64,000 nt of DNA, taken from a virus. The notes under the pieces are model-generated. The model was given only the letters and a program-made list of their open reading frames with translations. It did not search any database and was not told the DNA's origin. The position numbers and the translations under genes were made by a program. The first letter of the stretch is position 1; every line of letters starts with the position of its first letter. Positions 6,538 through 64,000 of the stretch are shown one piece after another. The stretch spans positions 1 through 64,000 of the IMG/VR virus record IMGVR_UViG_3300037140_000174. One strand, written 5' to 3'.

Positions 6538-6813
6538 ATGAAAGAGTTTGGTAATGTTGGCCCCGAAGATAGGGGTTCTGAGCTTGAAGGCAAAGGCCCC
6601 GGTGCATCTGGGCATGATCAGCCTCAGGGGAAGAGCATTGGTGCTGGTCATCCTACGGGTAAGGCTGAGCACCATCCTCACATGAAGATGGAAGCGCACA
6701 GCTTCAAGATGCCAGCAGGCAATAATGCTCACACGTTCTGCGGCACCAAGAAGTCAGGTATGCTTCGGGTATCCGGTCATTCTGGTGCCCATCAGGTTGG
6801 GCGCAAGAAGTAA
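6538..6813 (+). CDS. Small Gly/His-rich phage protein A
   Basis: A 91-residue hydrophilic protein rich in Gly, His, Lys and Met, probably largely disordered. Its end, LRVSGHSGAHQVG followed by basic residues, matches the end of the next protein, so the two share a short C-terminal module. AAAGG lies upstream of ATG 6538. Position before the terminase genes fits a minor head protein, but function is unknown. Confidence 0.65.
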   Translation: MKEFGNVGPEDRGSELEGKGPGASGHDQPQGKSIGAGHPTGKAEHHPHMKMEAHSFKMPAGNNAHTFCGTKKSGMLRVSGHSGAHQVGRKK

Positions 6814-13326: not shown

Positions 13327-13609
13327 TTTGGTTCCCTCTCAACAAGGCGCTTTGTCTCAACAGATGGCCCAAGCCTTGATGGCTGGTGGCAACGATCCAA
13401 TGCAGCAAGCTCTTAATACACCGTATGGGCAGCAAGGGGCTCAAACTCAGCTTCCAATGCAGGGTGGAAGCATGATGATGCAAAGGCCCCCCGGAATGCA
13501 AATGCCAATGAACCCCAACATGAAAGATCAATCACGGTTCATGTCGCATCAATACCCACCGTCAATGCTTGGTGTTAGTCCTCCATCACTGGGGCCTAAT
13601 TTTAGGTAG
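13319..13609 (+). CDS. Met/Gln/Pro-rich small protein
   Basis: A 96-residue protein with an ideal AGGAGG site before ATG 13319. Composition is extreme (MQGGSMMMQRPPGMQMPMNP), probably disordered, and it resembles the Pro/Gly/Met tract of the portal and the small protein at 27986. Its place between portal and scaffold suggests a head-assembly or internal protein. No family recognised. Confidence 0.65.
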   Translation: MADLVPSQQGALSQQMAQALMAGGNDPMQQALNTPYGQQGAQTQLPMQGGSMMMQRPPGMQMPMNPNMKDQSRFMSHQYPPSMLGVSPPSLGPNFR

Positions 13610-13632: not shown

Positions 13633-13691
13633 GTTAAGAGTGAAACAAGAGCAAATGGTCCGCACCCGCCGACCGCAAATGGAGAGTGTTT

Positions 13692-14999
13692 ATGTTGACT
13701 GATAAATGGCTTCGTACCACTTACCTCACTGCACCCGAAGGCGTTGTTGGAAATGAAGGGGGTGATGCTGGGGGTGATGCTGGTGGTGCACCGCCCCTCG
13801 ATATTGGTGTAGACCATCCAGTTAGTGATGGGCCTGGGAGTGGGCGATCCACAATTAGGAAGCAGCTTGAGGGGGAATTTGAGAAGGATCGTAAGCGCAG
13901 TGCTGCTCCGGCTAGGAAGGGGCGTGTTGCTCAGGGCGCGGCCCGGCTTGAGGACGAACCTGAAGAGCCGAAGGATCCTGGAACTGAAGCTCCAGTAGAA
14001 CCGGCCGCCCCTGTTGTTGCAGAATCAAAGCTGGCCCCGCCTGAAGGCTTCTCTAAGGAAGCGAAGGCTGAATGGGAAAAAACCCCGGCTCAGGTGCAAC
14101 AGGCTATCCTTAAGCGTGAACAGGATATGTCTAAGGGGGTTGAGGAGCTGAAGAAGCGTTATACTGACATTGACCAAGCTCTAACCCCTCGGATGGATGT
14201 AATCCGGAAGCATGGGCATACCCCTGGTCAGGCGATACATCAGCTTTTCTCTTGGTTTGAGGCGTTATCTCAAGATCCGGTCAGGTTGAAGAGCGGTCAG
14301 GCTCCAGTTGCGTTGGAAGCATTGGCCAAATCTTTTGGTATTGATCTTAGAGCAATTTACACTCCTCAGCAGCAAGCTGAGAAGCCGAAGGAAGTTGCAC
14401 AAGAACCGGGTAAGGATGGGCAACCGGCTGGTGCTGTGCCCCCGCAAGTACAAGCTTATATCGACAGCATGAAGGAGCAGCTTGCTCAGTTTGGGCAGGC
14501 AGTTCAGCAGCGGTTCGGTTCGATTGAGAACACGTTCCAGAGACAGTCGCAGGCACAAACTCAGGAGATGCTCGATTCTTGGTCCAAGGATAAGCCATAT
14601 TTTGAGGACGTTCGTGGCATGATGGCTCATTTGATTACACCGGGGCCAGCTTCTGCTATGTACCCTCAGGGTTCGCCCCCGGCCGTGCCCCCTCTGGCAA
14701 ACGGATCAGCAGATCTTGACACGGCCTACGATATGGCTATTAATGCGATGCCAGCAGTCCGGCAAAAGGTACGCCAGGAAGAGCTGACAAAGATTGAAGC
14801 CGATCGAGTTGCTAAGGAGCAGAAGGAGAAAAAGGCTCAACAGGAAGCCGCTGACAAGGCCCGCAAGGCAAGTGGCAGTTTGAGTCTTACAGCTCCCGGT
14901 GCCCCGGTCACTCCACAGAAGGGACCGAAGCAACGCAAGTCGGTTGGTGATAGCCTTAGGGAAGCTATTGCTGAGCATTCCAAAGGCAGCAGAATATGA
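13692..14999 (+). CDS. Putative scaffolding protein
   Basis: A 435-residue protein immediately before the major capsid gene, the usual scaffold position. It is highly charged and helical: a Gly/Asp-rich start, an acidic/proline linker, PPEGFSKEAKAEWEKTPAQV then long helices with KGVEELKKRYTDIDQAL, and a Lys-rich end (KKAQQEAADKARKASG) that could contact coat protein. ATG 13692 has GGAGAG upstream; GTG 13686 is the alternative. It would direct procapsid assembly and leave before maturation. Confidence 0.75.
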   Translation: MLTDKWLRTTYLTAPEGVVGNEGGDAGGDAGGAPPLDIGVDHPVSDGPGSGRSTIRKQLEGEFEKDRKRSAAPARKGRVAQGAARLEDEPEEPKDPGTEAPVEPAAPVVAESKLAPPEGFSKEAKAEWEKTPAQVQQAILKREQDMSKGVEELKKRYTDIDQALTPRMDVIRKHGHTPGQAIHQLFSWFEALSQDPVRLKSGQAPVALEALAKSFGIDLRAIYTPQQQAEKPKEVAQEPGKDGQPAGAVPPQVQAYIDSMKEQLAQFGQAVQQRFGSIENTFQRQSQAQTQEMLDSWSKDKPYFEDVRGMMAHLITPGPASAMYPQGSPPAVPPLANGSADLDTAYDMAINAMPAVRQKVRQEELTKIEADRVAKEQKEKKAQQEAADKARKASGSLSLTAPGAPVTPQKGPKQRKSVGDSLREAIAEHSKGSRI

Positions 15000-15164
15000 G
15001 GCCCGTATCGATCACGGGAGCCACACAGGGCTGAAGCATCGAGCAACGTGGCATAAGCATCCACCAGCGTCAGTAGCTCTAGGCATACAAGCCAGAGCGA
15101 ACAGCGCAAAAGGGATGGTGCTGCACTCAACGCAATCGCTGGGAAAGTTAAAAGGGGACCTTAA

Positions 15165-16199
15165 ATGGCTTCGTTTCCCAATCTGAGTGAAATTGTCACG
15201 ACTACCCTGCGTAATCGCACGGGTGAGCTCGCTGATAATATGAGTCGTAATAACGCGGCTCTGCTTCGACTTACTCGACGCGGTAACCTGAAGACGTTCT
15301 CAGGTGGCCGCACAATCGTCCAAGAACTTAACTACGCTGATAACCAGACCTTCCAGTGGTACAGTGGTTACCAGACGCTGAACATTTCCCCTTCTCAGGT
15401 GTTCTCGGCTGCTGAATACCCGATCCGTCAGGCGGCTGTTGCCGTTTCGATCAGCGGGTTGGAAGAGCTTCAGAACTCTGGTGAAGAGGCGATCATCGAT
15501 CTGCTTGAAAGCCGCATTATGAACGCTGAAGACACGTTCATGAACGGCCTTTCTCAGGGCATCTATGGTGATGGTACTGTCACCAACTCTGTTGGTGGCC
15601 TCCAGTTGCTTGTTGCCTCAAGCCCGACGACCGGCGTGGTTGGCGGTATTGATCGCAGCCAGTGGCAGTTTTGGAGGAACCAGACCTGGTCGGCTGCGAC
15701 GAACGGCTCTACCGTTCTGAGCTCTGCCAGCATCCTTCAACAGATGGATGCCCTCTGGGTGCAGTTGGTTCGTGGCCGTGACTATCCGGACCTGATCGTG
15801 ATGGATAACGTCATGTATCGGTATTACCTCAGTGCGCTGCAAGCTATTCAGCGTATTGGGCCGGAAGGCACGCCCCCCGATCTGGCTGAGGCTGGGTTCC
15901 AGTCCCTGAAGTACCTGAACGCAGATTGTGTTCTGGATGGTGGCTTCCAGGGGTTCAGCACTGACCCGCTGCCCGCACAAACGTCTACGTCTTCCTCTGC
16001 CGTTGGTGGTGCTCCGTCGACCACTGGGTACTTCCTCAATACGAAGTACCTGCATTGGCGTCCGCACTCCCGCCGTAACATGGTTCCGCTTGACCCGGAT
16101 CGTTTCTCGGTCAACCAGGATGCCATGATCCGGTTGATCGGATGGGCTGGGAATATGACCATTTCGAACGCATTTTTGCAGGGAGTTCTCACCTCGTAA
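15165..16199 (+). CDS. Major capsid protein
   Basis: A 344-residue coat protein with the outline of an HK97-type fold. Residues 9-39 form the N-terminal arm (EIVTTTLRNRTGELADNMSR and after), followed by the GGRTIVQELNYAD strand, the EEAIIDLLESRIMNAEDTFM spine helix, a central PDLIVMDNVMYRYYLSALQA segment, and the LNTKYLHWRPHSRRNMVPLDP loop near the end. AAAAGGGGACC lies before ATG 15165. The 165-base gap before it has no long gene. Residues 9-39 have a striking match in an early-region protein at 44716-44811. Confidence 0.9.
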   Translation: MASFPNLSEIVTTTLRNRTGELADNMSRNNAALLRLTRRGNLKTFSGGRTIVQELNYADNQTFQWYSGYQTLNISPSQVFSAAEYPIRQAAVAVSISGLEELQNSGEEAIIDLLESRIMNAEDTFMNGLSQGIYGDGTVTNSVGGLQLLVASSPTTGVVGGIDRSQWQFWRNQTWSAATNGSTVLSSASILQQMDALWVQLVRGRDYPDLIVMDNVMYRYYLSALQAIQRIGPEGTPPDLAEAGFQSLKYLNADCVLDGGFQGFSTDPLPAQTSTSSSAVGGAPSTTGYFLNTKYLHWRPHSRRNMVPLDPDRFSVNQDAMIRLIGWAGNMTISNAFLQGVLTS

Positions 16200-18318: not shown

Positions 18319-19172
18319 ACTGTTTCAAAGATTCTGATGAATGGGAAGAGTTGCTCAACACTAAAGATCCACATTTTTCTCCTGCTTTTTATCGTGCTTT
18401 TGGTGGGGGTAAACTTGCGGTATTTGATCGCAACACTTATCAGCCATTTCGTCATCAGGAAGGAAATTGGATAGGGAATGCTTATAATTTCGGTGGCATC
18501 CTCGGCACCTGCACGAATGTTCACAAATTTACTGATGAGTTTGATGAGTGGAAGACACAAAAAGGATTGAATGAACGGTGTACCCTTAGTTTATTTGACT
18601 ATCACTGCATCGAAAAGATGCACCGAAATATAACCACTAAGAGTTCTGTAGTCGTTGACCTTGCTGCTCCACTTTATCTACGTCAAACCACAAAACATTC
18701 CATAGCCAAGGCTACTGAGGCTGGGATTTATACTCAAGTAGTGGATTCAACAGTTGAGAATGCTTCCCTTTTTGAAGAGATCTACCTTGAATCTATGGGG
18801 CGTAAAGGGGCGGCTGCTCATTGGAGGTACCCATCTGGGTTTTTCTACTCAGTTTTGAGGGAATTAGGCACTTCTCGTTCAGCTCTTGTATTGTCGGCAC
18901 ATAAAGGTCGTACTGAAAGTGGCTGCTTTGTCATTTTTGATGAGAAGACGTGCTATTACCATTGGGCGGCCCGTAGGGCTGATGTTTCAACGGTGGGGGT
19001 AGATGCCTTTCAAGTGTGGAACGTCATTGGGTGGGCACGACAACACGGTTGTCGGTGGTTATGTCTTGGTGGGGGCCTGACTGAGGGGGATAGCTTGTTT
19101 AGCTTCAAAGCTGGCTTTTCAAAACTGTTCTTCACGACCAGGAGCTATGTCACAGAAATAGGGAGTGCGTGA
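18303..19172 (+). CDS. GNAT-fold acyltransferase of the FemAB/BioF2-like type
   Basis: A 289-residue protein with GTG start 18303 (GAGGA site) overlapping the glycosyltransferase end. The C-terminal half, with SALVLSAHKGRTESGCFVI, CYYHWAARRAD, VWNVIGWARQHGCRWLCLGG and LFSFKAGFSK, has the strand-helix order and terminal GG...FKxGF of double-GNAT proteins (FemAB, BioF2-like). These transfer acyl or aminoacyl groups to amino groups. In this cassette it could acylate the amino sugar made by the LegC-type aminotransferase, replacing LegH. Substrate inferred from context only. Confidence 0.65.
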   Translation: MLKFLDCFKDSDEWEELLNTKDPHFSPAFYRAFGGGKLAVFDRNTYQPFRHQEGNWIGNAYNFGGILGTCTNVHKFTDEFDEWKTQKGLNERCTLSLFDYHCIEKMHRNITTKSSVVVDLAAPLYLRQTTKHSIAKATEAGIYTQVVDSTVENASLFEEIYLESMGRKGAAAHWRYPSGFFYSVLRELGTSRSALVLSAHKGRTESGCFVIFDEKTCYYHWAARRADVSTVGVDAFQVWNVIGWARQHGCRWLCLGGGLTEGDSLFSFKAGFSKLFFTTRSYVTEIGSA

Positions 19173-19988
19173 ATGGTTGAGATTATCGCTGAGGCCGGAT
19201 TAAATCATAAAGGAAACCTTGATTTAGCTCTGGATATGGTAGAAGCAGCCGCTGCTGCTGATGCTGATGTTATTAAGTTTCAGACTTTTGATCCTTCCCA
19301 AATGTATCCTGATACTCATCCTTCATTCAAAATTCTAACCGAGTTACGACTCAGTCAAGCAGATTTTATTAGCATAGCCAAGAATTGTGAGAAATTAGAA
19401 ATTGAGTTTATGTCTACCCCAGGGGATGTAGATAGTTTGAAATTTTTGGTTTGGGAATGCGGGGTAAAGCGGATAAAAATTGGTTCTGATGACTTAACTA
19501 ATGAACCACTTCTTAGTGCGGCTGAGGATAGTGGGTTGCCTATTATTCTTTCTACTGGAATGGCAACCATGGACGAAGTTTGCGATGCAATGGACAAATT
19601 GAGGCCAAGCACACGTAGTCTAACCACTATTCTTCACTGTGTGTCGTCCTATCCTTGTGCCGTTGACGATGTTAATCTCAATGCCATGGATACATTGGGG
19701 AGATATTTTGGCAAAGTCGGGTATTCTGACCATACCAAAGAAGGGCTTGCTTGTATTGTTGCTGCCTCAAAGGGAGCAATAATCATTGAGAAGCACTTTA
19801 TGCTTCGGGATGACCCAGGGTGCATTGATTATTTAGTTTCAATTGATCAATGGAAGCTACAAGAGCTTATCTCCAAAATTCGTCAAGTTGAATTTATGCT
19901 TGGAACCGGTAGCAAGGTTCCGTGTGAAGCTGAGAAGAAAAACATCCCACTTTTCAGAAAAGGTAAGAATGGCAGGAGATGCGCGTGA
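19173..19988 (+). CDS. neuB: Nonulosonic acid synthase (NeuB/LegI type), lacking the SAF domain
   Basis: A 271-residue TIM-barrel synthase condensing a hexosamine derivative with phosphoenolpyruvate to form a nonulosonic acid. Family motifs are IIAEAGLNHKGNLDLALDMV, DVIKFQTFDP (catalytic Lys), FMSTPGDVDS, KIGSDDLTNEPLL, LSTGMATMDEV, LHCVSSYP, VGYSDHT and IIEKHF. Usual family members are about 340-350 residues with a C-terminal antifreeze-like SAF domain; here the protein stops right after the barrel. GGGAG lies before ATG 19173, and the stop overlaps the neuA start (GTGA). Synthase family very likely; which nonulosonic acid is uncertain. Confidence 0.9.
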   Translation: MVEIIAEAGLNHKGNLDLALDMVEAAAAADADVIKFQTFDPSQMYPDTHPSFKILTELRLSQADFISIAKNCEKLEIEFMSTPGDVDSLKFLVWECGVKRIKIGSDDLTNEPLLSAAEDSGLPIILSTGMATMDEVCDAMDKLRPSTRSLTTILHCVSSYPCAVDDVNLNAMDTLGRYFGKVGYSDHTKEGLACIVAASKGAIIIEKHFMLRDDPGCIDYLVSIDQWKLQELISKIRQVEFMLGTGSKVPCEAEKKNIPLFRKGKNGRRCA

Positions 19989-20653
19989 GAACTATGGCAG
20001 TTATCCCAGCTAGGGCTGGAAGTGAGCGATGCCCTGGCAAGAACAAAGCAGCTCTTGATGGGAAGCCATTGATTTGCTGGACGATTGAAGCTGCTCAATT
20101 GTCAACTATGTTTGACGATATTGTTGTTAGCACTGATGACCAAGATATTGCTATTATTGCAATGCAGAAAGGATGCAAGGTAATTGAACGCCCATTTGAA
20201 TTGGCTCAATCTGACAGTGAAATGCTTCCTGTAGTTAGACACGCTTATAATGGTTTTCATTCGGATGTTGTAATGCTGCTTCAGCCAACGTCACCTTTTA
20301 GGACGGCAGAAGATATTTGCAATGCTTTCGGTATTCATGAAAGTAGGCATGGGGATGCTGTGATTTCGGTAATTGAAGCACCAAAGAATGATGTTTTTGA
20401 GATTGGACACGCTGGTAGGCTTCATCCGACCAGGCATACAGTAGTTGTTCCTAATGGGGCTATTTATCTAATTACAGGTGAACATCTTTTGAACAAAGGT
20501 GATTGGTATTCTGGAATTTCGTATGCTTATCAAATGCCAAAGGAACGTTCGCTTGATATCGACACAAAAATGGATTTGGAATACGCTAGGATGTTTGTCA
20601 AAGAGCGTGCCAAAAATGAAGATAGGTCACGGTATGCAAGTGAAGCTGGCTGA
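19985..20653 (+). CDS. neuA: CMP-nonulosonic acid synthetase (NeuA/LegF type)
   Basis: A 222-residue cytidylyltransferase that activates a nonulosonic acid with CTP. It has the signature AVIPARAGSERCPGKNKAAL near the N-terminus, DIVVSTDDQDIA, LLQPTSPFRTAEDI and DIDTKMDLEYA near the end. GTG 19985 is chosen because AGGAG (19974-19978) lies six bases upstream and GTGA overlaps the neuB stop; ATG 19979 touches the ribosome site and ATG 19994 is too far. It produces the donor for the glycosyltransferase at 17401. Confidence 0.9.
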   Translation: MRTMAVIPARAGSERCPGKNKAALDGKPLICWTIEAAQLSTMFDDIVVSTDDQDIAIIAMQKGCKVIERPFELAQSDSEMLPVVRHAYNGFHSDVVMLLQPTSPFRTAEDICNAFGIHESRHGDAVISVIEAPKNDVFEIGHAGRLHPTRHTVVVPNGAIYLITGEHLLNKGDWYSGISYAYQMPKERSLDIDTKMDLEYARMFVKERAKNEDRSRYASEAG

Positions 20654-21770
20654 TGCAATTGAGGAGGTGCTGCCGAAGCATAGGCCCATAGGGCATCATG
20701 ACGCTGCTATTAATGGCAAGGAATGGGTAGCAGTATCTGATTGTTTGAATGATCTGACTTCGGATAAATATGTAACCCTTCTTGAAGATAAGATTTCACA
20801 TTACTGTGATGTATCTTCTGTAATAGCAACTTCATCTGGAACTGCTGCCCTGCATTTGGCTTTGTTGGCAGTTGGGGTTAAGCCGGGTGAAGAAGTTTTA
20901 GTTCCAGCTTCAACTTTTGCAGGTACCGCTTTTGCGGTATCTTATTGTGGGGCAATCCCAAATTTCATTGATGGCACTGTTAGGATAAACGCTTACAAGC
21001 TTCGGCGCTATCTAGAAAGAACAACTGTAAAGAATTGGAATAGAAGGGGCCGCTTGAATTCTAAGACAGGAAGGGTAATATCAGCAATCATCGCTGTTGA
21101 TCTGCTTGGCTTCCCAAATGATATGGAGAAGCTGGCTGCTGTAGCTGATGAGTTCGGGCTTACCCTCATTGAAGATGCGGCCCAGGCTCTTGGTGCCTCT
21201 TTAGGCAACCGGCGCTGCGGTAGCTTCGGTAAAGCAGCGATTTTAAGTTTCAATAACAATAAAATCGTCACTGGGAATGGGGGTGGAGCAGTTCTGACTA
21301 ATGATGAGTGGATTGCCGCTAAGGTTTGGCAATTGGCCACCACCGGCAGGATAAAGCACCCTTGGAAAATTGAGCACGATGCAATTGGGTTTAATTACCG
21401 AATGAAAAATATCAATGCTGCGATTGCTTGTGCTCAGTTTGATCAATTGGATTTCTTTCTACAAAAGAAGCGTGAGCTTCGTGATCGTTATAAGCGAGCA
21501 ATTAGCGAGATTAAAGAGGTAGGGCTATTACTGACAGGTGAAGATTGGCAAGGAAAGCCGAACTATTGGTTAAATGCTATGTTGGTGCCAAACAAAGACC
21601 GGGAAGCTGTTCTAGACGAACTTAATAAGCGAGGTATTGGGGCGCGTTCACTTTATACTCCACTTCACAAGCTGTCGATGTATGAAGATAACCCAAGGGA
21701 CGATCTTCGATCGGCAGAAATTCTAGCTTCCATGGTCGTTTGTCTTCCATCAGGGATAGGATGTGCGTGA
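20634..21770 (+). CDS. PLP-dependent DegT/LegC-type aminotransferase
   Basis: A 378-residue sugar aminotransferase of the DegT/DnrJ/EryC1 family. TSSGTAALHLALLAVGVKPG binds PLP phosphate, LVPASTFAGTAFA follows, LIEDAAQALGA is the Asp-containing cofactor loop, and ILSFNNNKIVTGNGGGAV holds the Schiff-base Lys in the pattern typical of LegC. It would convert a 4-keto sugar nucleotide into a 4-amino sugar on the way to legionaminic-type acids. It overlaps the neuA end; ATG 20634 begins the recognisable N-terminus. No 4,6-dehydratase to make its substrate is in the window. Confidence 0.85.
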   Translation: MQVKLADAIEEVLPKHRPIGHHDAAINGKEWVAVSDCLNDLTSDKYVTLLEDKISHYCDVSSVIATSSGTAALHLALLAVGVKPGEEVLVPASTFAGTAFAVSYCGAIPNFIDGTVRINAYKLRRYLERTTVKNWNRRGRLNSKTGRVISAIIAVDLLGFPNDMEKLAAVADEFGLTLIEDAAQALGASLGNRRCGSFGKAAILSFNNNKIVTGNGGGAVLTNDEWIAAKVWQLATTGRIKHPWKIEHDAIGFNYRMKNINAAIACAQFDQLDFFLQKKRELRDRYKRAISEIKEVGLLLTGEDWQGKPNYWLNAMLVPNKDREAVLDELNKRGIGARSLYTPLHKLSMYEDNPRDDLRSAEILASMVVCLPSGIGCA

Positions 21771-22201
21771 TGAAAACTCTGTTGTTTGCAGCGGTGTTGT
21801 TAGCGACTCCAGCTTTAGCGAGAGATCAAGGGCAGTGGGGTGATACTGATCCTGCTGTGCGTCAATGGTTTCAATCTTTAATGCAGCCAGATAACCCATA
21901 TGTAAGTTGTTGCGGTGAAGCGGATGCTTATTTTGCTGATAGCTACAAGGTCGGTTCTCACGGTGAAACAATCGCTATTGTCACTGATGAAAGGCCAGAT
22001 TCATGGGTTGATAATAGTGGCATAACACATAGTCGCCCACACATCCCGGTTGGGACTCAGGTCATTATTCCGGATGCAAAGATAAAGTGGGATAAAGGTA
22101 ACCCAAGTGGTCACGGGCTTATATTTATTGGTGCATCTTATGTTTCGACGGATGGACAAGTTCAGAACGTATATTGTTACGTTCTGCCGGGGGGCGTGTA
22201 A
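21770..22201 (+). CDS. Exported Cys-containing small protein
   Basis: A 143-residue protein with signal peptide LLFAAVLLATPALA and a cleavage site ALA-R. The mature part begins DQGQWGDTDPAVRQWFQSLM, contains VSCCGEADAYFADSY, and ends with KWDKGNPSGHGLIFIGASYV and CYVLPGGV. This domain type is found in proteins of alphaproteobacteria and their phages; no activity is known to me. It is coupled to the aminotransferase (TGATG) and to the next gene (TAATG), so it is expressed with the sugar cassette. Confidence 0.7.
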   Translation: MKTLLFAAVLLATPALARDQGQWGDTDPAVRQWFQSLMQPDNPYVSCCGEADAYFADSYKVGSHGETIAIVTDERPDSWVDNSGITHSRPHIPVGTQVIIPDAKIKWDKGNPSGHGLIFIGASYVSTDGQVQNVYCYVLPGGV

Positions 22202-22410
22202 TGTTAACCATTATCTTAACTGTTATTATGATTATGCCGGGGGATAAACCGGATGTAAGCCAATCTCATGAAATGGCCTCCCTTGATGAGTGTTCGAGTG
22301 CAGCTCGTGCATGGTTAGAACAGGATGCAAAGGCTGCTGGCGTGGCTGGGTTTGCGTCTGGTTGTTCAATCACAGACACTAGAACTGATCCTCCTGGGGA
22401 GGATAACTAA
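22201..22410 (+). CDS. Small membrane or exported protein
   Basis: A 69-residue protein starting with a hydrophobic stretch (LTIILTVIMIMPG) followed by a hydrophilic helical part with two cysteines (DECSSAARAWLEQ, SGCSITD). TAATG overlaps couple it to both neighbours. It may be periplasmic, since the hydrophobic segment is short. Function unknown. An upstream TTG (22174) exists but ATG 22201 has GGGGG close by. Confidence 0.55.
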   Translation: MLTIILTVIMIMPGDKPDVSQSHEMASLDECSSAARAWLEQDAKAAGVAGFASGCSITDTRTDPPGEDN

Positions 22411-23423
22411 TGCGTGTAGCCCTAGTAACTGGAAGTAGAGCTGATCTTAATGCCCTTCGAATGGTTCATGACGGGCTGCTGAAACATACAAAGTTTCAAC
22501 CAGTTCTAATAAAGTCGGATCACTGGCAATTAGCCATTCCCACTGATATAGCGATAGTTTGTGGTGACCGCTATGAAATGTTGGAGACTGCTTTCAAGCT
22601 GAACCTTAAGCGTATCCCAATTGTCCATCTTGCTGGCGGGGATATAACTGGGGGAAGTCAAGACGATTGCTTCCGTCACGCAATCACAAAGCTTTCCCAT
22701 GTTCACTTCCCCACGAACCATGAATCGGCAAAGCGCATACTTCAAATGGGGGAAGACCCTAGACACGTTCATATGGTGGGTTCTGCCAGCCTTGATTTGG
22801 TTCTTCAGACTGAATTGCTGGACCGGGACACTACCTTTGCTGCCGTAGGGCTCAGGACGCCTCAGCGGGCGCTACTGGTAAGCTTTCACCCTAACACTTT
22901 AGGTGACACTGCCCAGGAATTGAGTGAGCTTAAAGCCGCCCTGCATGAATTGGACATTGCTTTGGTGATGATCGGCCCAAATAGGGATGCAGGTTGGGAA
23001 TTGATTGCAGCAGCCTTTGGTGCTCTCAGTGTTTCTCATAACGTGGTTTATGCTCATCACTTCGAGCCCAAAGTGTATCATTCCTTGATGTACTGGTGTG
23101 ATGCAATGGTGGGTAATTCGTCAGCGGGGGTCTATGAGGCTCCTTCTTTTGGAACGCCAGTAGTCAATATTGGGGATCGTCAGTCTGGACGGTTGAAAGC
23201 TCGATGTGTGACTGATTGTGACCCTGAGCGTAACGATATCCTTTCAGCTATAAGGTGGGCATTGTCAATGAAACGCTTTCCTCCTGAAAACCCGTATGGT
23301 GACGGTCATGCGAGTGAGCGGATTGCCAAAGTGCTCACCAGCATTGACGAACCTAAGCTTCTTCTGCATAAAGTATGGAACGATCTTCAGAAAACAGGTT
23401 CGCGTCAGCCTAAAGTGGCGTAA
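22410..23423 (+). CDS. neuC: Hydrolysing UDP-sugar 2-epimerase (NeuC/LegG type)
   Basis: A 337-residue GT-B-fold epimerase that converts a UDP-N-acetylhexosamine into the free 2-epimer for the synthase. Motifs are VALVTGSRADLNALRMV, IVCGDRYEMLETA, PIVHLAGGDITGGSQDDCFR, HMVGSASLDLV, LVSFHPNT, and the nucleotide-binding end VGNSSAGVYEAPSFGTPVV with IGDRQSGR. It completes a LegC-acyltransferase-LegG-LegI-LegF order, although the two exported-protein genes separate it from the rest. TAATG overlap with the gene before. Confidence 0.88.
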   Translation: MRVALVTGSRADLNALRMVHDGLLKHTKFQPVLIKSDHWQLAIPTDIAIVCGDRYEMLETAFKLNLKRIPIVHLAGGDITGGSQDDCFRHAITKLSHVHFPTNHESAKRILQMGEDPRHVHMVGSASLDLVLQTELLDRDTTFAAVGLRTPQRALLVSFHPNTLGDTAQELSELKAALHELDIALVMIGPNRDAGWELIAAAFGALSVSHNVVYAHHFEPKVYHSLMYWCDAMVGNSSAGVYEAPSFGTPVVNIGDRQSGRLKARCVTDCDPERNDILSAIRWALSMKRFPPENPYGDGHASERIAKVLTSIDEPKLLLHKVWNDLQKTGSRQPKVA

Positions 23424-41539: not shown

Positions 41540-41572
41540 GCCCTCGTCATTAATTTGACGGGGGCTTTTTTA
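41540..41572 (+). terminator. Rho-independent terminator of the late genes
   Basis: A 10-bp stem (GCCCTCGTCA with TGACGGGGGC, one U-G pair), a six-base loop and six Ts. It follows the last small membrane gene and isolates the gcrA-like gene, which must have its own transcription or readthrough. Confidence 0.88.
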
Positions 41573-41632
41573 TTCCTGGCGTATTTAGGGGGTGTGCCCT
41601 AGTTTTTTAGGCATGACTAAATGGAGAAAAGC

Positions 41633-42268
41633 ATGAAACTAAAACCTAACCAAAAATGGACTCAAGACGTGGTTGATGAAGTCAGGGCTTGTGCAGCTAG
41701 AACCCTGTCTTCTGGGGAAACTGCAAAATACATTAGCGATAAACTTGGAAAGTATCTTTCACGAAACACTATTATTGGGATTGCTATGCGAGCAAAACCA
41801 GTAATCACTTTTGGTGCTCGTCCGCCTCGTGGTGGTAAGAAACGGCAAAAAGTAATTACGCTAACGGCACCCAAGAAAATTGAACTTAAAAAGGAGACCG
41901 TTAACAACTCTGGTATGAAAGCCATCAACATCAGGCGTAAGCGTGCCAAACTTCTTGAAGAATTACCTGCTGAGATAGTTGTTGCACCGGAGCCTATTGT
42001 TGTTGATGAAGATAAAGCTTGCACAGTATTGGATCTTACATCCAAAAATTGTCATTACCCGATGTGGGGTGAAACCGCAGGACCTTATGTGTTCTGTGGG
42101 TTGCCAACGGCAAAGAAGCCTTACTGTGCTGTTCACAGGCGAATCGCTGGACGTCAATACAATACTTCTAAACGTGACCCATCAGCGTCCTTGACGGCAG
42201 TAATAGTGCCTGAGAAGCCGCCAAAGTCCAAGGACGAATGGTCAACCATGAATACCCGCTTACGCTGA
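41633..42268 (+). CDS. gcrA: GcrA-family cell-cycle regulator
   Basis: A 211-residue protein of the alphaproteobacterial GcrA family, which binds sigma70 RNA polymerase and methylated promoters. The N-terminal helix-turn-helix (WTQDVVDEVRACAARTLSSG, KLGKYLSRNTIIGIAMRAK) matches the GcrA start, and the C-terminal Cys/His module (KNCHYPMWGE, YVFCGLP, KKPYCAVHRRIAGRQY) matches its end. The linker is basic. GGAG six bases before ATG 41633 favours it over ATG 41621. Its 3' end overlaps the convergent sbcC-like gene by 115 bases. It may redirect host transcription. Confidence 0.85.
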   Translation: MKLKPNQKWTQDVVDEVRACAARTLSSGETAKYISDKLGKYLSRNTIIGIAMRAKPVITFGARPPRGGKKRQKVITLTAPKKIELKKETVNNSGMKAINIRRKRAKLLEELPAEIVVAPEPIVVDEDKACTVLDLTSKNCHYPMWGETAGPYVFCGLPTAKKPYCAVHRRIAGRQYNTSKRDPSASLTAVIVPEKPPKSKDEWSTMNTRLR

Positions 42269-43740
42269 TCTGAAGCACGTTCGGCTAGCGTTTCAGCTAG
42301 ATCAAGAACGCCTGTTGGGCTTAAATGTGCGCTGGGTTCATCAAAAAATTCTATGGAGTTGATGAGCCCAGCCTTTTCCATGATTAGATTCGCTAACCCC
42401 AAATCACCGGCTAGGCTCAACCGCTGAATCTCACCCCCGGACCAGGCTTCAAACTTAACTGGTTCTGCGTGCCCTGGGGAACGGATCAGGACTACAAAGC
42501 CTTTGGTGATGCCACCCGACTTGTTTTCCCGCTCAATGTCAAATTCTACAGCCCAATCAGTGAGCCCAAGATTGGCTAGATTGTTGTTTACCTCGATTTC
42601 AAGCTGACGAAGTGATTCCTCAACAATAATAAGCCGAATACGCTTGAACCCAGTGACCCAGAAGCTGACAGCTACGTGCTCTTCCTCAACTTTAGTTATC
42701 TGCTGGGCTATAGATTCAATTTTATCTTTTACAGCCTTTAAGCTGGAACGCTTCTCAGCTATCAGTGTTGAGAAGTGATTCTCACGTTTCATCTCTTTTG
42801 AAATTGAAGACTTCAAGTCACTGATTTGGGATTCACGGTCTTGTTCCCAGCGTGTAAGCCTGCGAAGCTTATCCTCAAAATCGGATTTGTTTTGCTGAAT
42901 TGCTTTTAAGTCGGGATTTGGTACTTTCTGATTGCAGGTCGGGCACAAGCCTTTGCCAGCGTGCTTTGCAATCCTAGCCTCTAAGCTAATTAGAACTTTT
43001 TTGACGTCCTTAATCTCTTTTTCTTGGTTATCCTTTATGATTAAGGATAACTGCCGCTCAAGATCCTTGATTGCAGCATTTTGGTTCTCAGTGAAATTGG
43101 CTTCCTTATCCTTAAGGATTGAGATATCGTCCTTGATCGTTTCAATCTGACCCTTATGCTTGGCTAAGATCAGTTGGAATTGTGACTTCTCAGCAGCTAG
43201 TTCCTTTGCTTTGTCATCTGCAAGCTTGCTCTTATCCAGCCAATAATCAAGTTCCAGGATTTCTGAGAACAGGGTCAGCTTATCAGCAGGTTTGAGATCA
43301 AAAAATGAATCCCCGAACTGTGGCAGGATAACTGAATGGACAAAAGCTTCAGGAGTCAGCCTGAGGTACTTTTGTAGCCCGTCCTGCTCAATAGGGCGGT
43401 CACTGGCTGCGTCTGCTTCGAGCGTCAGCCCATTAGGGCTTTGGCTTCGGCGCACCCTGAGCCTTTTGTGGCCTATTGTGAGGGTGACGGTTACGGAACA
43501 GCTTTTGGCCCCCCAAGAAACTACATCACCAGCCTTAAGGCCTCTTAGTGTCCGGCCGTATAGGCACCAAAAAATAGCATCTAACAGTGATGATTTCCCA
43601 CACCCATTGGTTTCTAGCCGTGGGTTATCTTCATTGCGCCCGGTGAGGCTATATAAGCCACTTCGTTTTGGCACTTTAAAGACATGTTCCCCAACATATG
43701 ATCGAAAATTATCCAATATTACTTCATGGATATCAAACAA
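42154..43740 (-). CDS. sbcC: SbcC/Rad50-type recombination ATPase
   Basis: A 528-residue SMC-like ATPase (T4 gp46 type). Walker A is TNGCGKSSLLDAIFWCLYG (about residue 45), a coiled coil carries the zinc hook GLCPTCNQ (about 267-274), and the ABC signature WSGGEIQRLSLAGDLGLANL precedes Walker B SIEFFDEPSAHLSP. It works with the SbcD nuclease on DNA ends. It begins at TTG 43740 with GGAAG upstream, overlapping the sbcD end. Short for SbcC, as in phages. Confidence 0.9.
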   Translation of the reverse strand: MFDIHEVILDNFRSYVGEHVFKVPKRSGLYSLTGRNEDNPRLETNGCGKSSLLDAIFWCLYGRTLRGLKAGDVVSWGAKSCSVTVTLTIGHKRLRVRRSQSPNGLTLEADAASDRPIEQDGLQKYLRLTPEAFVHSVILPQFGDSFFDLKPADKLTLFSEILELDYWLDKSKLADDKAKELAAEKSQFQLILAKHKGQIETIKDDISILKDKEANFTENQNAAIKDLERQLSLIIKDNQEKEIKDVKKVLISLEARIAKHAGKGLCPTCNQKVPNPDLKAIQQNKSDFEDKLRRLTRWEQDRESQISDLKSSISKEMKRENHFSTLIAEKRSSLKAVKDKIESIAQQITKVEEEHVAVSFWVTGFKRIRLIIVEESLRQLEIEVNNNLANLGLTDWAVEFDIERENKSGGITKGFVVLIRSPGHAEPVKFEAWSGGEIQRLSLAGDLGLANLIMEKAGLINSIEFFDEPSAHLSPTGVLDLAETLAERASDQRKRVFMVDHSSLDFGGFSGTITAVKDADGSRLEVLY

Positions 43741-44719
43741 GCAGTTTACTTCCAGCTTTTTTGATGTTATTCGCTACTTTCTCGGCTTTACAGAAGTCAG
43801 TAAACACTTCCTCACGGGTTCGTGAAGTGCCCGGCTCAAGCTTCGTTCGTTCTTTGCGCTTTGAAGGGGCTACTTTCAGATCAACCCCATATACGTCCAC
43901 ACCCATTTCCGCACAAGCTTCTAAAGCACGCCGTTTGTGAGCAGCCCATTCAACGACTTCTTCTCGTGCTAATTCAATCATGACCTTGACTTGATCCCCT
44001 TCACGCAGGTCTTCGTTATCAAGTATCTCATCTGCGTCATGAATTTGCAGCACCCATTTATGAGGCGCTGGAAAGTACAGGTTCTGTTCCTTGCCATTTT
44101 TAATGATCAATACTCTTGGAGAAAAATCATCTCCGAATCTTACATGGTAGGGAGCCCCCACATAAGTTATGCCGCCCACCCGTTGTGGTCGGTGTATGTC
44201 CCCTGCCCAGGCACCTAGGGGTCGTTTTGTCTCAATAGCTGCTGCGCTCAAGCCCGACAAACGGGCTCCTGTTTCAGCAATGGCCCCGTCTAACGCCTGA
44301 TGAAGAACTACTCCTGGAGCTTTATCAGGAATTATGCTGGCAGTCTTATCCAAAGCTTGTTGGTTCGGTTGATGTGGAATCATAGCCATTCCATGCTCTT
44401 TAAGGAATGTGGGCTCAACTACGAACTCAACCCCTTCGATGCAATTCAAGAACTTAAAATAAGGATTGTCTGGGTCGATAAAGTCATGATTACCCTTGAG
44501 GATGTAGATTGGTGGCTTCAGCCCAATCAGTTCGTCAATTATCCTGTTTACTAGCTTTGACGAATGTTTATCCTTTTTCTCCGTAATGTCACCAAGTATA
44601 AAGGTAGCCGTGGTGTTGTATTTCTGTTGCTGCTTCGCGAGCCACTGGAATAGTTCAAATCGGTGCTCATCCCGAGCACGATCGCTTAAATGCAAATCTG
44701 AAGTTATCAGCCAAGTCAC
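43733..44719 (-). CDS. sbcD: SbcD/Mre11-type nuclease
   Basis: A 328-residue metallophosphoesterase nuclease (T4 gp47 type). Motifs are ITSDLHLSDRARDEHRFE, FILGDITEKKDKHSS, YILKGNHDFIDPDNP and, later, GAWAGDIHRPQ followed by ITYVGAPYHVRFGDD. It forms an end-processing complex with the SbcC-like ATPase. It starts at GTG 44719, with GAGG upstream and GTGA overlap with the stop of the preceding gene. Confidence 0.9.
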   Translation of the reverse strand: MTWLITSDLHLSDRARDEHRFELFQWLAKQQQKYNTTATFILGDITEKKDKHSSKLVNRIIDELIGLKPPIYILKGNHDFIDPDNPYFKFLNCIEGVEFVVEPTFLKEHGMAMIPHQPNQQALDKTASIIPDKAPGVVLHQALDGAIAETGARLSGLSAAAIETKRPLGAWAGDIHRPQRVGGITYVGAPYHVRFGDDFSPRVLIIKNGKEQNLYFPAPHKWVLQIHDADEILDNEDLREGDQVKVMIELAREEVVEWAAHKRRALEACAEMGVDVYGVDLKVAPSKRKERTKLEPGTSRTREEVFTDFCKAEKVANNIKKAGSKLLV

Positions 44720-45183
44720 TTCTTGGTCATCCTCAAAAGCATGGCGTTACTTCTAGCTAGGTTTTGAGACAATTGACCTGTTCTGTTTCTCATGGTTGTG
44801 CTTATGATCTCACCCATCATTCCAGCCCCTTGTTTGACTGGTTTCCAAATTTTTAGGTTCTTACCAGAGGTAAGATAACCCAATCCTGATGGTTTATATA
44901 AACACTTATCCGGCCATTCGGGTTCAAGCTTATTGAGTGAATAACTTTCATATTCAGGAACTGATCGCATCCTGATGAATTGATCGTCAGCAATTAGGGC
45001 CTGCATAGGTTTACCCATATGAAGGCCAACACGCATCCTGATTAGGATTGTCTCTCGAAAACCTTTTAACCTAAGCGGTATTTCACCCCTATTGTTAGAC
45101 TCAAAGTGAGCCCATGTCATGCCCTTTGATCGGCGCATTTCCCTTTCAATTTCTTCAGCGGTTCTCATCTCTTTGGTTTCCAT
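44716..45183 (-). CDS. Unknown early protein carrying a capsid-arm-like C-terminus
   Basis: A 155-residue protein. Residues about 20-118 are a copy of the 45165 protein: MTWAHFESNNRGEIPLR, MRVGLHMGKPMQALIADDQF and KIWKPVKQG against FSWDHFENTHRGEIHTR, MRVGLFLGRPVQAIIFRGHI and ALWKPKR. Residues 125-155 are absent from that copy and align without gaps to residues 9-39 of the major capsid protein (18 of 31 identical, most others conservative). The gene lies between a paralogue and sbcD on the early strand. The fold and role of the main domain are not recognised. Confidence 0.75.
   Translation of the reverse strand: METKEMRTAEEIEREMRRSKGMTWAHFESNNRGEIPLRLKGFRETILIRMRVGLHMGKPMQALIADDQFIRMRSVPEYESYSLNKLEPEWPDKCLYKPSGLGYLTSGKNLKIWKPVKQGAGMMGEIISTTMRNRTGQLSQNLARSNAMLLRMTKK
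44719..44811 (-). other. 31-residue segment matching the major capsid N-arm
   Basis: EIISTTMRNRTGQLSQNLAR plus 11 more residues here versus EIVTTTLRNRTGELADNMSR plus 11 in the capsid protein (nucleotides 15189-15281). Only about half the bases agree by hand count and the arginine codons differ (AGA/AGG here, CGN there), so it is not a recent DNA copy. The match ends exactly at the stop codon. Confidence 0.85.
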
Positions 45184-45539
45184 AGGGCAGTGAAGTGTTT
45201 CGGTGATTTGGGTGATTGTTTCCAGTCGTTAGGATATAAATTGTCATTGGGACAATTTGGGTTCAATTTAGTCAGCACACACTTATCGTCAATATAGTGT
45301 TGTGCTGATTTAGTTCGGATTATGTGCCCCCGAAATATAATGGCCTGTACTGGCCTTCCAAGGAACAACCCAACTCTCATATAGAAGGTATAACCGCGTG
45401 TGTGAATCTCACCCCTATGAGTGTTCTCAAAATGATCCCAGCTAAAATACTGACCAAGAATTGTCTCGATAGCTTCGATAAGATTCTTCTCATGCTCCTC
45501 TTTTGCGGCTTCCCAGTAGGCTAAGGCGGAATCGCGCAT
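45165..45539 (-). CDS. Unknown early protein, paralogue of the 44716 gene
   Basis: A 124-residue protein. After a helical start (YWEAAKEEHEKNLIEAIETI) it has FSWDHFENTHRGEIHTRG, MRVGLFLGRPVQAIIFRGHI and a Pro/Asn-rich end closing with ALWKPKR. The same blocks occur in the next gene, so the pair arose by duplication. It overlaps both the nuclease before it and its paralogue. Function unknown; composition suggests a beta-rich domain. Confidence 0.65.
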   Translation of the reverse strand: MRDSALAYWEAAKEEHEKNLIEAIETILGQYFSWDHFENTHRGEIHTRGYTFYMRVGLFLGRPVQAIIFRGHIIRTKSAQHYIDDKCVLTKLNPNCPNDNLYPNDWKQSPKSPKHFTALWKPKR

Positions 45540-58377: not shown

Positions 58378-59352
58378 TCATTTGTATTTATCAACGAGCT
58401 TTAGAACTTGTTGTTCAGACAATTCTCCAGGATCTTTTATCCCTTCTGGCAATGCGCCGATAATTACGTTTTTTGAGTGTAGCCAATCAGCCGCATAGAA
58501 AGCAGGTTCAACTGCATCTTGATCAAAGAGAACCACAACCTTTTTGAATCTACGCCTAAGCGCACTTAGAATGCAAATCTGGTCAATACTCATTGTGACA
58601 CCAAAGACACAAGTGGCCCTAGCCCCATATTGCTTCCCGTAATAGTCCAGTTTCAGGGCATCAAAGGGGCCTTCTACTATAAAGAGTGTATCGTCCCCTT
58701 TTTGAAGCTTTTCCTCAAAGCAAACAGTGTGCTTCACTGCTTCAGACGAACTGAGGTATCTGGGTGCATTGACTGGGTTGCTGATTGCGCGTCCTGTCCA
58801 CCCTACCAAGTCACTGTTAGAATCATAGAATGGGATAACCACCCTATCCTTCCAACGTCCGCTTAAAGCACACTGCAATTCATATTCTTCAACCAAGCAT
58901 GAAATGCTGGTGAATCCCCTCCTCTTGAGATAGTTCCAGAACTTCTTGGTTGGCCCATCCTTTTTTACAGTTCTGAACTCTTCAGGCAACTCAAGGGGGT
59001 GGGCTGAGGGAGCCCATTTGTCGGGCTTAGGGGGCTCACTGGTGGCGGTTAAACTGGCCAAGGCCTCGTCAAGGTTGGACGGATCGGGGCGACTGTACTG
59101 CCCCGCTACCAGTTTAGCCTGCCCAAACGAGCATCCAAGCAGGCCCTGGATAAGTTTTTGGGGGCTTTTACCCCTATGAGCACCATTCCTGAGGCAACCC
59201 CAATTCTCAGTGGTAAGGCTGATCCCAAGATGTTCAGATGGATCGTCGTCACCACAGAACGGGCAGTGAATCGACACTTCACCACGCTTGGTGTTGCCAC
59301 TTTTTGTAACATACCCAATGTGGTTATCATCTAGAAATTCTATCCAGTTCAT
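58378..59352 (-). CDS. DNA primase (zinc ribbon plus TOPRIM)
   Basis: A 324-residue primase. The CHC2-like zinc site is VSIHCPFCGDDDPSEHLGIS with WGCLRNGAHRG. TOPRIM follows: DDTLFIVEGPFDALKLD holds the catalytic Glu and VVVLFDQDAVEP the DxD pair. WTGRAISNP lies before TOPRIM in the place of the RNA polymerase fold. It works with the DnaB-like helicase. ATGA overlap with the HTH gene. Confidence 0.9.
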   Translation of the reverse strand: MNWIEFLDDNHIGYVTKSGNTKRGEVSIHCPFCGDDDPSEHLGISLTTENWGCLRNGAHRGKSPQKLIQGLLGCSFGQAKLVAGQYSRPDPSNLDEALASLTATSEPPKPDKWAPSAHPLELPEEFRTVKKDGPTKKFWNYLKRRGFTSISCLVEEYELQCALSGRWKDRVVIPFYDSNSDLVGWTGRAISNPVNAPRYLSSSEAVKHTVCFEEKLQKGDDTLFIVEGPFDALKLDYYGKQYGARATCVFGVTMSIDQICILSALRRRFKKVVVLFDQDAVEPAFYAADWLHSKNVIIGALPEGIKDPGELSEQQVLKLVDKYK

Positions 59353-61762: not shown

Positions 61763-61982
61763 TGTTTTCTAGTTCCTCACGCGTCTTTGCCCCCTTCTCA
61801 TATTTCTCTTTAAGCCGAAGGAAGTAAGCCTGAGCCATATAGACAATTATATCTGGTTCATGTTTTGCAAAAATCCCGCACGTTATCTCCTCAGTAGATT
61901 TTATCGCCCCTTCTGGGGAGTCAAACAGCCCCTCAATTATCTCCTTCATCTCCCGCTGGGAGGTTCTCCCAATAAACGCCAT
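61755..61982 (-). CDS. Small early protein
   Basis: A 75-residue helical protein (REMKEIIEGLFDSPEGAIKS, HEPDIIVYMAQAYFLRLKEK). It lies between the helicase gene, which it overlaps by 50 bases, and the SNF2 gene, sharing overlaps with both. No family recognised. Confidence 0.55.
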   Translation of the reverse strand: MAFIGRTSQREMKEIIEGLFDSPEGAIKSTEEITCGIFAKHEPDIIVYMAQAYFLRLKEKYEKGAKTREELENNA

Positions 61983-64000
61983 TCATCAGTGTTGAGTCCA
62001 CCATGTAAGCACCGATCCCATATTGCTGTGAGATACAGATAGTGATTTTATCCTCATCATTACGGCCACCAGCCACATGCAAACGGGCCAAGCCCAACTT
62101 GTGCTCTGCCTTCGTTTGCGTGTACGTGATCACGGTATCAGCATGGGCTATCTTACTGTACGCCTCAGCTACGTTGTCTGAACCCACTAGCTTTGATTTG
62201 GCTGCGCTGCGGTGGCTTTGGCTTACCACGGCTCCAGCTATGTTGCGGCTTACCAGTAGCCCCCTAATGCGTTTATAGGTGTCATCAATGGCTAGCCTGA
62301 AGTTAGCCGCATCAAGCTTCATCAAATCAGGATAATCAATGATTAGCAGGTCTGGGATAAACCGCTCAGTTTGCTCCAGGTTATCCAAGTATGCTTCGAG
62401 CTGGTTTACAGTGAGGCTGCCAGTGGGGAACTGTTTTATGTAGATGTTATCCAACCATCTAGTTCCAGCCTTATCTATCTTTTTGGCTAGCTTCGCTTTG
62501 ATGTTTGGGTCATCAAAAGATAAAGTTGGTGTGACCCTTACATCTGCAAAGCCACTAATGCGATCAAGTTTATCCTTTTCGAAGTGAATTGTTTGAAAGC
62601 TTTCCTTACGCTTTGAGATGGCAAAGAACGCTTGTAAATACCTTTGAGCGCAACGCGCCTCTGACATCTCAAGCGTGATATGACAAACCCTGACCCTGTG
62701 GATCAGAGCCATTTTGGCTAGGTGGATGAGCGCCCAGGTATTGTGGACAACAAGGTTACCCGCGATGAAATTGTGAGTTCTTTCAACTGAAAGGTCATAT
62801 GTTCTGACTCTACCGGCTTTTTCTATTGAAACTACTTTATCATAGAAAATGCTACCAACTCGGTCATTGCAGGTATAATTGGTTCGCGCGCCTGACAAAC
62901 CATGTTTTCTTATTAGTGTGTTTAACTTCCTCTGTTTGCCAAAAAACAATCCAATATCATCGTCAAACTTAACAATTTGACGCTTTCCTTTTATAGAAAC
63001 AGTCCAACTGCAATATGGCTTTCCAGCCACAATTTGCCATCGTTCCCTTACCTTTGAGACGAGGCCGAATCTGGTTAGAAGATGATCTACCTGACGTGCA
63101 AGCACTTTGCTTGTTGTTCCATATTCAAAACAAGCCCCGGTTTTTTTATCAAAGATGGAGCCGTCACAAGTGAATAGGGCTGATAGGAACTCAGCAATTA
63201 ACTTCTTTTTTAGCCTAAAGATAAAGTCTGGGATTACTTTAGCGTTTGATTTTTTTCCAATTAATTCATTCGTCTTTAGCAAATTGACGATGTTATTCTC
63301 TTTCCCGTGACTTGTGACCCAATATTCTCCAAACACTTTTTTACTTGGAGTAAGGGTGCAGCCCACAGTTTCTGCACAACGGATAAAATCTGCAACTACT
63401 TCATGATCATGTTTCGTGAATGTTGGGGTTGAGGCTTTTGTGAGCCCCCCATCCGCAATTAAATACCCAAGTAGTCTTAATTGCTCGCGAGGAAATTCCT
63501 CATTTCCAAAAAATGGTAGCTCAATTGGAGCTGCAATTGCCTCACCTACCCTAACCTCAGAAGTGAGCTTCCAACCTGATTTAGTTAGAAGTGGATGATT
63601 ATCAGTTAGAGTTACTGTGCGCCCAGTTCTGGTTGTAACCTTGACTACGTTCTTAATCCCATTGAAGGCAAGTCTTGCAGGCTTTGCCTCAAAACGCATC
63701 GTATCTTCATTAAGAGAAGCAACGCTAACTCCTACCATATCAATATTCTGAATTGGCACATAACTGCCATCAGCTAGGAGGACTTGCTCCCCTTCTGCAA
63801 TACATTTCCCGGCTTTGGTGTTGGCGATGTAGAGCCACATCTCTTTACGAGTTGGGCCAAATCCTCGTTTGTCCAACTCAGGTATGCCTGTAGGTAGAGC
63901 AACTGTTGAATTGTCAAGGAATCCAAGCGCTCGCTTTTTATCACTGAGTCGAGTGCCTGGGTCAAATATTCCCAGCGTTTGCTTATTCGCCTTAGATAAA
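61933..64000 (-). CDS. DnaB-type replicative helicase interrupted by an intein (5' partial)
   Basis: The RecA-like motor domain of a DnaB-family helicase, cut by the right window edge. Before the intein the frame reads TGIPELDKRGFGPTRKEMWL and YIANTKAGK; after it, TWALIHLAKMALIH. Excised, Walker A is NTKAGKTWALI. Later marks are ITLEMSEARCAQRY, Walker B DLLIIDYPDLMK, and GAVVSQSHRSAAKSKLVGSD. The N-terminus and possible primase contact are outside. Only extein splicing gives an active ATPase. The frame has no Met before the motor region inside the window except the TTG at 63876, an unlikely start. Confidence 0.9.
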   Translation of the reverse strand, partial: LSKANKQTLGIFDPGTRLSDKKRALGFLDNSTVALPTGIPELDKRGFGPTRKEMWLYIANTKAGKCIAEGEQVLLADGSYVPIQNIDMVGVSVASLNEDTMRFEAKPARLAFNGIKNVVKVTTRTGRTVTLTDNHPLLTKSGWKLTSEVRVGEAIAAPIELPFFGNEEFPREQLRLLGYLIADGGLTKASTPTFTKHDHEVVADFIRCAETVGCTLTPSKKVFGEYWVTSHGKENNIVNLLKTNELIGKKSNAKVIPDFIFRLKKKLIAEFLSALFTCDGSIFDKKTGACFEYGTTSKVLARQVDHLLTRFGLVSKVRERWQIVAGKPYCSWTVSIKGKRQIVKFDDDIGLFFGKQRKLNTLIRKHGLSGARTNYTCNDRVGSIFYDKVVSIEKAGRVRTYDLSVERTHNFIAGNLVVHNTWALIHLAKMALIHRVRVCHITLEMSEARCAQRYLQAFFAISKRKESFQTIHFEKDKLDRISGFADVRVTPTLSFDDPNIKAKLAKKIDKAGTRWLDNIYIKQFPTGSLTVNQLEAYLDNLEQTERFIPDLLIIDYPDLMKLDAANFRLAIDDTYKRIRGLLVSRNIAGAVVSQSHRSAAKSKLVGSDNVAEAYSKIAHADTVITYTQTKAEHKLGLARLHVAGGRNDEDKITICISQQYGIGAYMVDSTLMNGVYWENLPAGDEGDN
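62740..63804 (-). mobile_element. 355-residue intein with LAGLIDADG endonuclease
   Basis: Begins with Cys (CIAEGEQVLLADGSYVPI, block A) and ends VVHN before a Thr (block G). Block B is TVTLTDNHPLLTKSGW, with the conserved His. The homing domain has two LAGLIDADG-type helices, LRLLGYLIADGGL and FLSALFTCDGS. Block F is VRTYDLSVERTHNFIAGN. It sits between Lys and Thr of the helicase P-loop, a common intein insertion site because the sequence is conserved. Confidence 0.95.

What the first reader, a model, noticed from the sequence alone, without database searches (positions are those of the whole stretch)
44716..44811. Major capsid N-arm mimic at the end of an early-region protein
Residues 125-155 of the 155-residue protein align without gaps to residues 9-39 of the major capsid protein (18 of 31 identical, nearly all others conservative), ending exactly at the stop. 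The neighbouring paralogue lacks this tail. DNA identity is only about half by hand count and arginine codons differ, so the similarity exists at protein level. It may be an assembly regulator, a scaffold-binding or capsid-targeting tag, a defence against other capsids, or an old fragment from another phage's coat gene.
Basis: seen in the sequence. Interest (0 to 1): 0.87.

Follow-up and report, generated by a model that had tools for sequence, protein, structure and literature searches.

The report
Capsid-arm copy on non-capsid phage proteins
An unknown phage protein made from the DNA-replication gene region ends in a copy of the "arm" that the phage's own shell protein uses during head assembly, and related phages carry the same arm on this and other proteins, which suggests a reusable address label that delivers proteins into the virus head.

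Summary
[quoted passage not shown] the best of 2,000 shuffles scored 53 against 109. The tail ends at the stop; the paralogue next door lacks it.

It is not a one-off. The same core with the same arm-like tail occurs in three more phages of IMG/VR (four records). Synonymous sites are saturated while the peptide is kept, so the tail is under protein-level selection. The arm's first half heads a His/Gly/Lys-rich late protein in seven other phages, and a full copy ends a small secreted-like protein in another. A replication primase carries a weaker version. MCP-invariant T12 and D24 are changed in all six copies compared.

Best reading: a portable docking helix that binds what the MCP arm binds. 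In 80alpha and SPP1 that partner is the scaffolding protein, and a conserved scaffold C-terminal helix is also present here. The likely result is delivery of the tagged protein into the procapsid. Docking and packaging are inferred, not shown. Rivals are an assembly regulator and a decoy. The core's fold and function remain unknown.

The parts
44716..45183 (-). Tailed 155-aa protein (core about residues 1-116, then capsid-arm tail); unknown family
   Evidence: no Pfam or PHROG match at E<=0.001; no fold match
44719..44817 (-). Capsid-arm tail, residues 123-155 (MGEIISTTMRNRTGQLSQNLARSNAMLLRMTKK), ending at the stop
   Evidence: 37.9 bits with a profile of MCP arms; best reversed-sequence decoy 11.4 bits; predicted helix 122-153 at moderate to low confidence
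45165..45539 (-). Untailed paralogue of the core, 124 aa, ends ...LWKPKR*
15165..16199 (+). Major capsid protein, 344 aa
   Evidence: phrog_9953, E=1.5e-106; relatives in phages Mx8, BUCT555 and ppBjS10J-1
15183..15281 (+). MCP N-terminal arm, residues 7-39, the sequence that is copied
   Evidence: helix 7-38 in a low-confidence model
13686..14999 (+). Putative scaffolding protein (gene position between portal and MCP); the proposed docking partner
   Evidence: position and homology to the matching genes of relatives; no PHROG match
14940..14996 (+). Conserved C-terminal helix motif of the putative scaffold (SVGDSLREAIAEHSKGSRI*)
   Evidence: SVRESLKAA-type motif at the C-terminus of 14 scaffold genes
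43733..44719 (-). SbcD-like gene; its GTG start overlaps the stop of the tailed gene
   Evidence: (phrog_100, 7.1e-23)
6538..6813 (+). Truncated homologue of the N-tagged His/Gly/Lys-rich late protein of relatives; its N-terminal tag is missing here
58378..59352 (-). Toprim primase, without the C-terminal extension seen in relatives G008 and G011

Best explanation
The tail is a portable copy of the MCP N-arm, an amphipathic helix, selected to bind whatever the MCP arm binds during head assembly. The likely partner is the C-terminal helix of the scaffolding protein. Binding would bring the tailed protein into the growing procapsid, so that it is enclosed and possibly later injected with the DNA. 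In relatives the same arm, whole or half, serves other proteins. Shown: homology, conservation of the tail across four phages, selection at protein level, and recurrence on unrelated proteins. Inferred: helix, scaffold binding, packaging. Unknown: what the core does once inside.
For: Blastp 5e-11 and profile score 37.9 bits. Same core and same tail, each ending within one residue of the stop, in G051, G053/G054 and G058. pS about 0.7-0.9 with pN about 0.3-0.4 between tails. Arm tags at either end of other proteins: an N-terminal half on a late His/Gly/Lys-rich protein about 8-9 kb upstream of MCP in G004, G009, G010, G011, G048, G057, G058 and a C-terminal full copy in G037. The second half, weaker, ends primases of G011 and G008. 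The copy stops where the arm ends, before the MCP body. Scaffold carries a conserved C-terminal helix. In 80alpha the scaffold's C-terminal helix binds the CP N-arm helix (PMC5644958); in SPP1 the scaffold binds MCP helix alpha1* (PMC6813328). Precedent for short peptides that send proteins into heads: T4 IPIII and P1 DarB (PMC9024508).
Against: No virion proteome, binding data or complex model. The MCP arm itself may have other contacts (E-loop, neighbouring subunits), so the partner is uncertain. MCP-invariant T12 and D24 are lost in all six copies, so the copy is not a full functional equivalent. The tail does not track its own MCP: G000 and G058 have identical arms but tails sharing only 13/33. 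Known capsid-targeting sequences are N-terminal; this one is C-terminal. Other paralogues of the core have unrelated tails.
Confidence: 0.5

Rival explanations
1. Assembly regulator: the tail competes with MCP for the scaffold (or for MCP) and delays or tunes procapsid assembly while replication proteins dominate; it is not packaged.
For: Gene lies among recombination and replication genes and is translationally coupled to SbcD, so it is probably made before MCP. Loss of T12 and D24 could make a binder that cannot build shell. SaPI CpmB shows that competition for this interface changes assembly (PMC5644958).
Against: The same arm also marks a late structural-region protein, which a timing inhibitor does not predict. 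MCP is normally made in large excess over a small early protein.
Confidence: 0.18
2. Decoy: the tail imitates capsid to occupy a host sensor that recognises MCP, or to poison the assembly of a competing phage or satellite.
For: MCP is sensed by defence systems such as staphylococcal Thoeris (PMC12578639). The tail is as close to foreign arms as to its own (18/33 to G000 and to G030).
Against: The published Thoeris escape sites noted there (V273A, W84K) are not in the N-arm. A copy on a late basic protein and on a small Tat-like protein is hard to explain as a decoy. No defence system was tied to these phages here.
Confidence: 0.1
3. The arm motif binds another shared partner (portal, terminase, DNA, host chaperone), and MCP, the tailed protein and the others meet it for reasons other than packaging.
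For: The partner was not identified here; the arm is rich in Arg/Asn; replication proteins (core family, primase) are among the carriers.
Against: Structural precedent points to the scaffold.
Confidence: 0.15
4. Fossil: a piece of a coat gene picked up by recombination and kept without function.
For: The piece ends at a domain border, and group I introns sit in MCP near that border in a relative, so exon-like mobilisation is conceivable.
Against: Four phages with saturated synonymous sites keep the peptide; shared loss of T12 and D24 in copies on three kinds of protein; IMG/VR scan for the B-half plus stop returned only tailed genes.
Confidence: 0.04

Closest known systems
T4 capsid targeting sequence (IPIII) and P1 DarB N-terminal packaging signal (PMC9024508)
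   Same: Short terminal peptide on non-shell phage proteins, shared or portable, thought to direct them into the head
   Different: Those are N-terminal; the T4/P1 signals are not described in the text read here as copies of the MCP arm. The tail studied here is C-terminal and is a copy of the MCP arm. Sufficiency for packaging is shown there, not here
MCP N-arm of HK97-fold capsid proteins (80alpha CP helix alpha1, SPP1 gp13 alpha1*; PMC5644958, PMC6813328)
   Same: The tail is homologous in sequence to this clade's N-arm; predicted helix
   Different: Attached to a non-capsid core, no MCP body, T12 and D24 replaced
SaPI capsid-redirection proteins (CpmB, an internal scaffold that competes with the phage scaffold; Ccm, a capsid-protein homologue)
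   Same: Proteins that imitate a partner in the MCP-scaffold interface
   Different: CpmB imitates the scaffold and Ccm is a homologue of the whole capsid protein; the tail is the arm alone on an unrelated core, encoded by the phage itself
Encapsulin cargo-loading peptides (own knowledge, not tested)
   Same: Terminal peptide that loads cargo into an HK97-fold shell
   Different: Cargo peptides are not copies of the shell's own arm

Membership tests
MCP N-arm (phrog_9953 N-terminus) | Sequence homology to the N-arm | tested here: met
   blastp 5e-11; 37.9 bits against a 23-arm profile
MCP N-arm (phrog_9953 N-terminus) | Arm attached to an MCP body | tested here: not met
   Stop after residue 155; the core is unrelated
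MCP N-arm (phrog_9953 N-terminus) | Invariant MCP residues T12 and D24 present | tested here: not met
   Replaced in all six copies compared
Capsid targeting sequence (T4/P1 type) | Located at the N-terminus | tested here: not met
   C-terminal in the tailed core proteins; N-terminal only in the late basic protein
Capsid targeting sequence (T4/P1 type) | Sufficient to bring a foreign protein into the head | not testable with these tools
   Needs a fusion experiment
Capsid targeting sequence (T4/P1 type) | Carried by more than one head-destined protein of the same phage | tested here: inconclusive
   G058 carries the arm on MCP, the core protein and the late basic protein; whether these enter the head is unknown
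Capsid targeting sequence (T4 type) | Removed by a prohead protease | not tested
   No prohead protease was looked for systematically
SaPI-type capsid redirection protein | Encoded by a satellite and redirects helper capsid size | tested here: not met
   Encoded by a phage with its own MCP, portal and putative scaffold

The most novel reading that the evidence does not exclude
This phage clade uses its own MCP N-arm as a modular sorting signal: whole or half arms were appended, at either terminus, to several unrelated early and late proteins so that the scaffold loads them into the head, giving a coat-derived cargo system for proteins to be delivered with the genome.
Probability: 0.4. Interest if true: 0.82.

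Novelty: new variant of a known kind. Interest (0 to 1): 0.66.

Why it matters
Head-packaged phage proteins that act at the start of infection are hard to recognise from sequence. A tag that is a readable copy of the coat's own arm would let such cargo be predicted from a genome alone, would mark unknown proteins as head-associated, and would give a portable loading peptide derived from a scaffold-coat interface. It also offers a test of which arm residues serve the scaffold (kept in copies) and which serve the shell (T12, D24, lost in copies).

Tried and rejected
Chance similarity: rejected. DNA-level recent copy or homing site: rejected, DNA identity 46/93 and third positions 7/31. Tail tracks the phage's own MCP: not seen. 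Other paralogue tails imitate other proteins of the same genome: no match. L028 48-aa B-half hit: out of frame inside the scaffold gene, dropped. G008 primase tail: below reversed decoys with the arm profile in the genome-wide search (9 bits), kept only as support for G011; primase tails of L188-L191 differ (GIARSNAWWKRSSHKP and similar), so the primase case may be convergent. G027 internal hit (204 aa): mid-protein, weak, not used. Fold of the core: good model (pLDDT 83) but no PDB or viral match at E<=0.001. MCP model: poor (pLDDT 41), used only for the helix prediction. Host prophages with the core: genome-contig scan found none. Core tree: most deep branches weak; single or repeated origin of the tail undecided. 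Scaffold C-terminal helix copied elsewhere: no. Mx8, BUCT555, ppBjS10J-1 and MW202489: no non-MCP arm copies.

Full report
WHAT IS THERE. The window is bases 1-64000 of a 93,069-base virus record. On the minus strand, in a block with UvsX/RecA-like, RusA-like, SbcD-like and SbcC-like genes, lie two paralogous small proteins: 45165-45539 (124 aa) and 44716-45183 (155 aa). They align over the core, and only the second has a tail. The MCP is at 15165-16199 on the plus strand.

SIGNIFICANCE. Tail residues 123-155 and MCP residues 7-39 align without a gap: 18/33 identical, 30/33 positive, 46 bits, E=5e-11. Smith-Waterman score is 109, against at most 53 in 2,000 shuffles. DNA identity is 46/93 with third positions matching at 7/31.

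RELATIVES. A profile of the core found relatives only in about ten IMG/VR contigs, none in the annotated phage records and none in genome contigs (one pattern scan). Most carry one to three tandem copies next to SbcD. All copies share the core, but tails differ. In three further phages one copy ends in the capsid arm: G051 (MSEIVNATIRNMTGQLAANMKRNNNLLMRLIKK*), G054 and its near-identical G053 (WGDIIRTTLRNRTGELSKTILKNNALLMKLSKRP*), G058 (LNELVKTTLRNCTGELAKNIQRNNALLKKLSARP*). Other tails match nothing else in their genomes.

SELECTION. Between tails, and between tails and arms, synonymous differences are near saturation (pS mostly 0.67-0.94) while pN is 0.24-0.41. A useless fragment would not keep the peptide. 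Tails do not follow their own MCP: the G000 and G058 arms are identical in protein, but their tails share 13/33.

OTHER CARRIERS. A profile of 23 MCP arms was run against all open frames of the fetched contigs, with reversed sequences as decoys (best decoy 11.4 bits, E=0.45). Besides MCP, above all decoys: the four tailed cores (38-45 bits); a small Tat-like protein of G037/L046 with the arm at its C-terminus (35 bits); a His/Gly/Lys-rich protein encoded about 8-9 kb upstream of MCP with the arm's first half at its N-terminus (G058 29.6 bits; also G057, G011, G009, and G004, G010, G048; sequences); and the primase of G011 with the second half at its C-terminus (20.8 bits). A short ORF of G045 and one of G008 near the same place also score. 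The G058 member matches DUF6496. In the window the homologue of this late protein is truncated and has no tag. An exact IMG/VR scan for the second half followed by Pro-stop returned only the three tailed genes already known.

WHAT DISTINGUISHES COPIES FROM ARMS. Over 23 arms, T12 is present in 22 and D24 in all 23; both are changed in all six copies compared (T12: S,N,R,K,R,Q; D24: Q,A,K,K,E,N), while E9, I10, T14, L15, R16, N17, G20, L22, R28, N30, L32, L33, R35 and L36 are mostly kept. I infer that T12 and D24 serve the shell and the rest serves a partner that the copies also meet. The four core tails may share ancestry, so these are not six independent events.

MECHANISM. In 80alpha the C-terminal helix of the scaffold packs on the N-arm helix of the capsid protein (PMC5644958). 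In SPP1 the scaffold binds the N-terminal helix of MCP (PMC6813328). The putative scaffold of this clade ends in a conserved amphipathic segment of the type SVRESLKAAMAELRDQ*. AlphaFold2 makes the tail one long helix, 122-153 (moderate to low confidence) and the MCP arm a helix, 7-38 (low confidence). So the simplest account is that the tail docks on the scaffold as MCP does and carries its protein into the procapsid, as the T4 and P1 targeting peptides carry theirs (PMC9024508). Steps shown: homology, conservation, recurrence. Steps inferred: helix, docking, packaging. Not known: core function; its fold has no match.

LIMITS. Most contigs are metagenomic fragments; hosts are unknown. The primase case is weak: relatives have different tails ending in similar residues. 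The number of origins of the core tail is undecided. No paper found here describes copies of the MCP arm on other phage proteins, but the library is limited and only six searches were made.

Noticed in passing
L116 (G058) 10731-13348, minus: MCP gene of relative G058 is split by three group I introns (RF00028; 51, 44 and 33 bits, the last two below gathering); the first lies just after MCP codon about 41, at the end of the arm.
   Followed up: partly
G045 15069-15164; G040 41541-41639; L047; L048; L052: MCP reading frames of other relatives break after codon about 27-28 (..ELADNMS or ..LQDNVS), probably another intron site inside the arm.
   Followed up: no
L094, L097, L102, L101, L095, L002: Untailed paralogues of the core often end in a short Trp motif (SAWQTLFGKSAI, NVWQKLMGV, SSWTGKNTP, ADWTER); some resemble sliding-clamp-binding peptides. 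Not tested.
   Followed up: no
L160 4125-5273; L134 15588-16736; L188-L197: Toprim primases of this clade have fast-varying C-terminal extensions of about 50 aa, absent from the window's primase.
   Followed up: partly
window 61933-63876, minus: DnaB-like ORF begins with intein-like sequence (CIAEGEQVLLADGSYVPIQ...VHN), seen in the translation only.
   Followed up: no
window 17401-23423, plus: Late region carries a sugar-nucleotide gene cluster (NeuB-, NeuA-, DegT- and NeuC-like by eye), unusual between head and tail genes.
   Followed up: no
L028 1714-2952, plus: Putative scaffold carries its C-terminal helix motif twice (SVGDSIRAAFKEVSE near the N-terminus, SVRDSIRAAFQELSE at the end).
   Followed up: no
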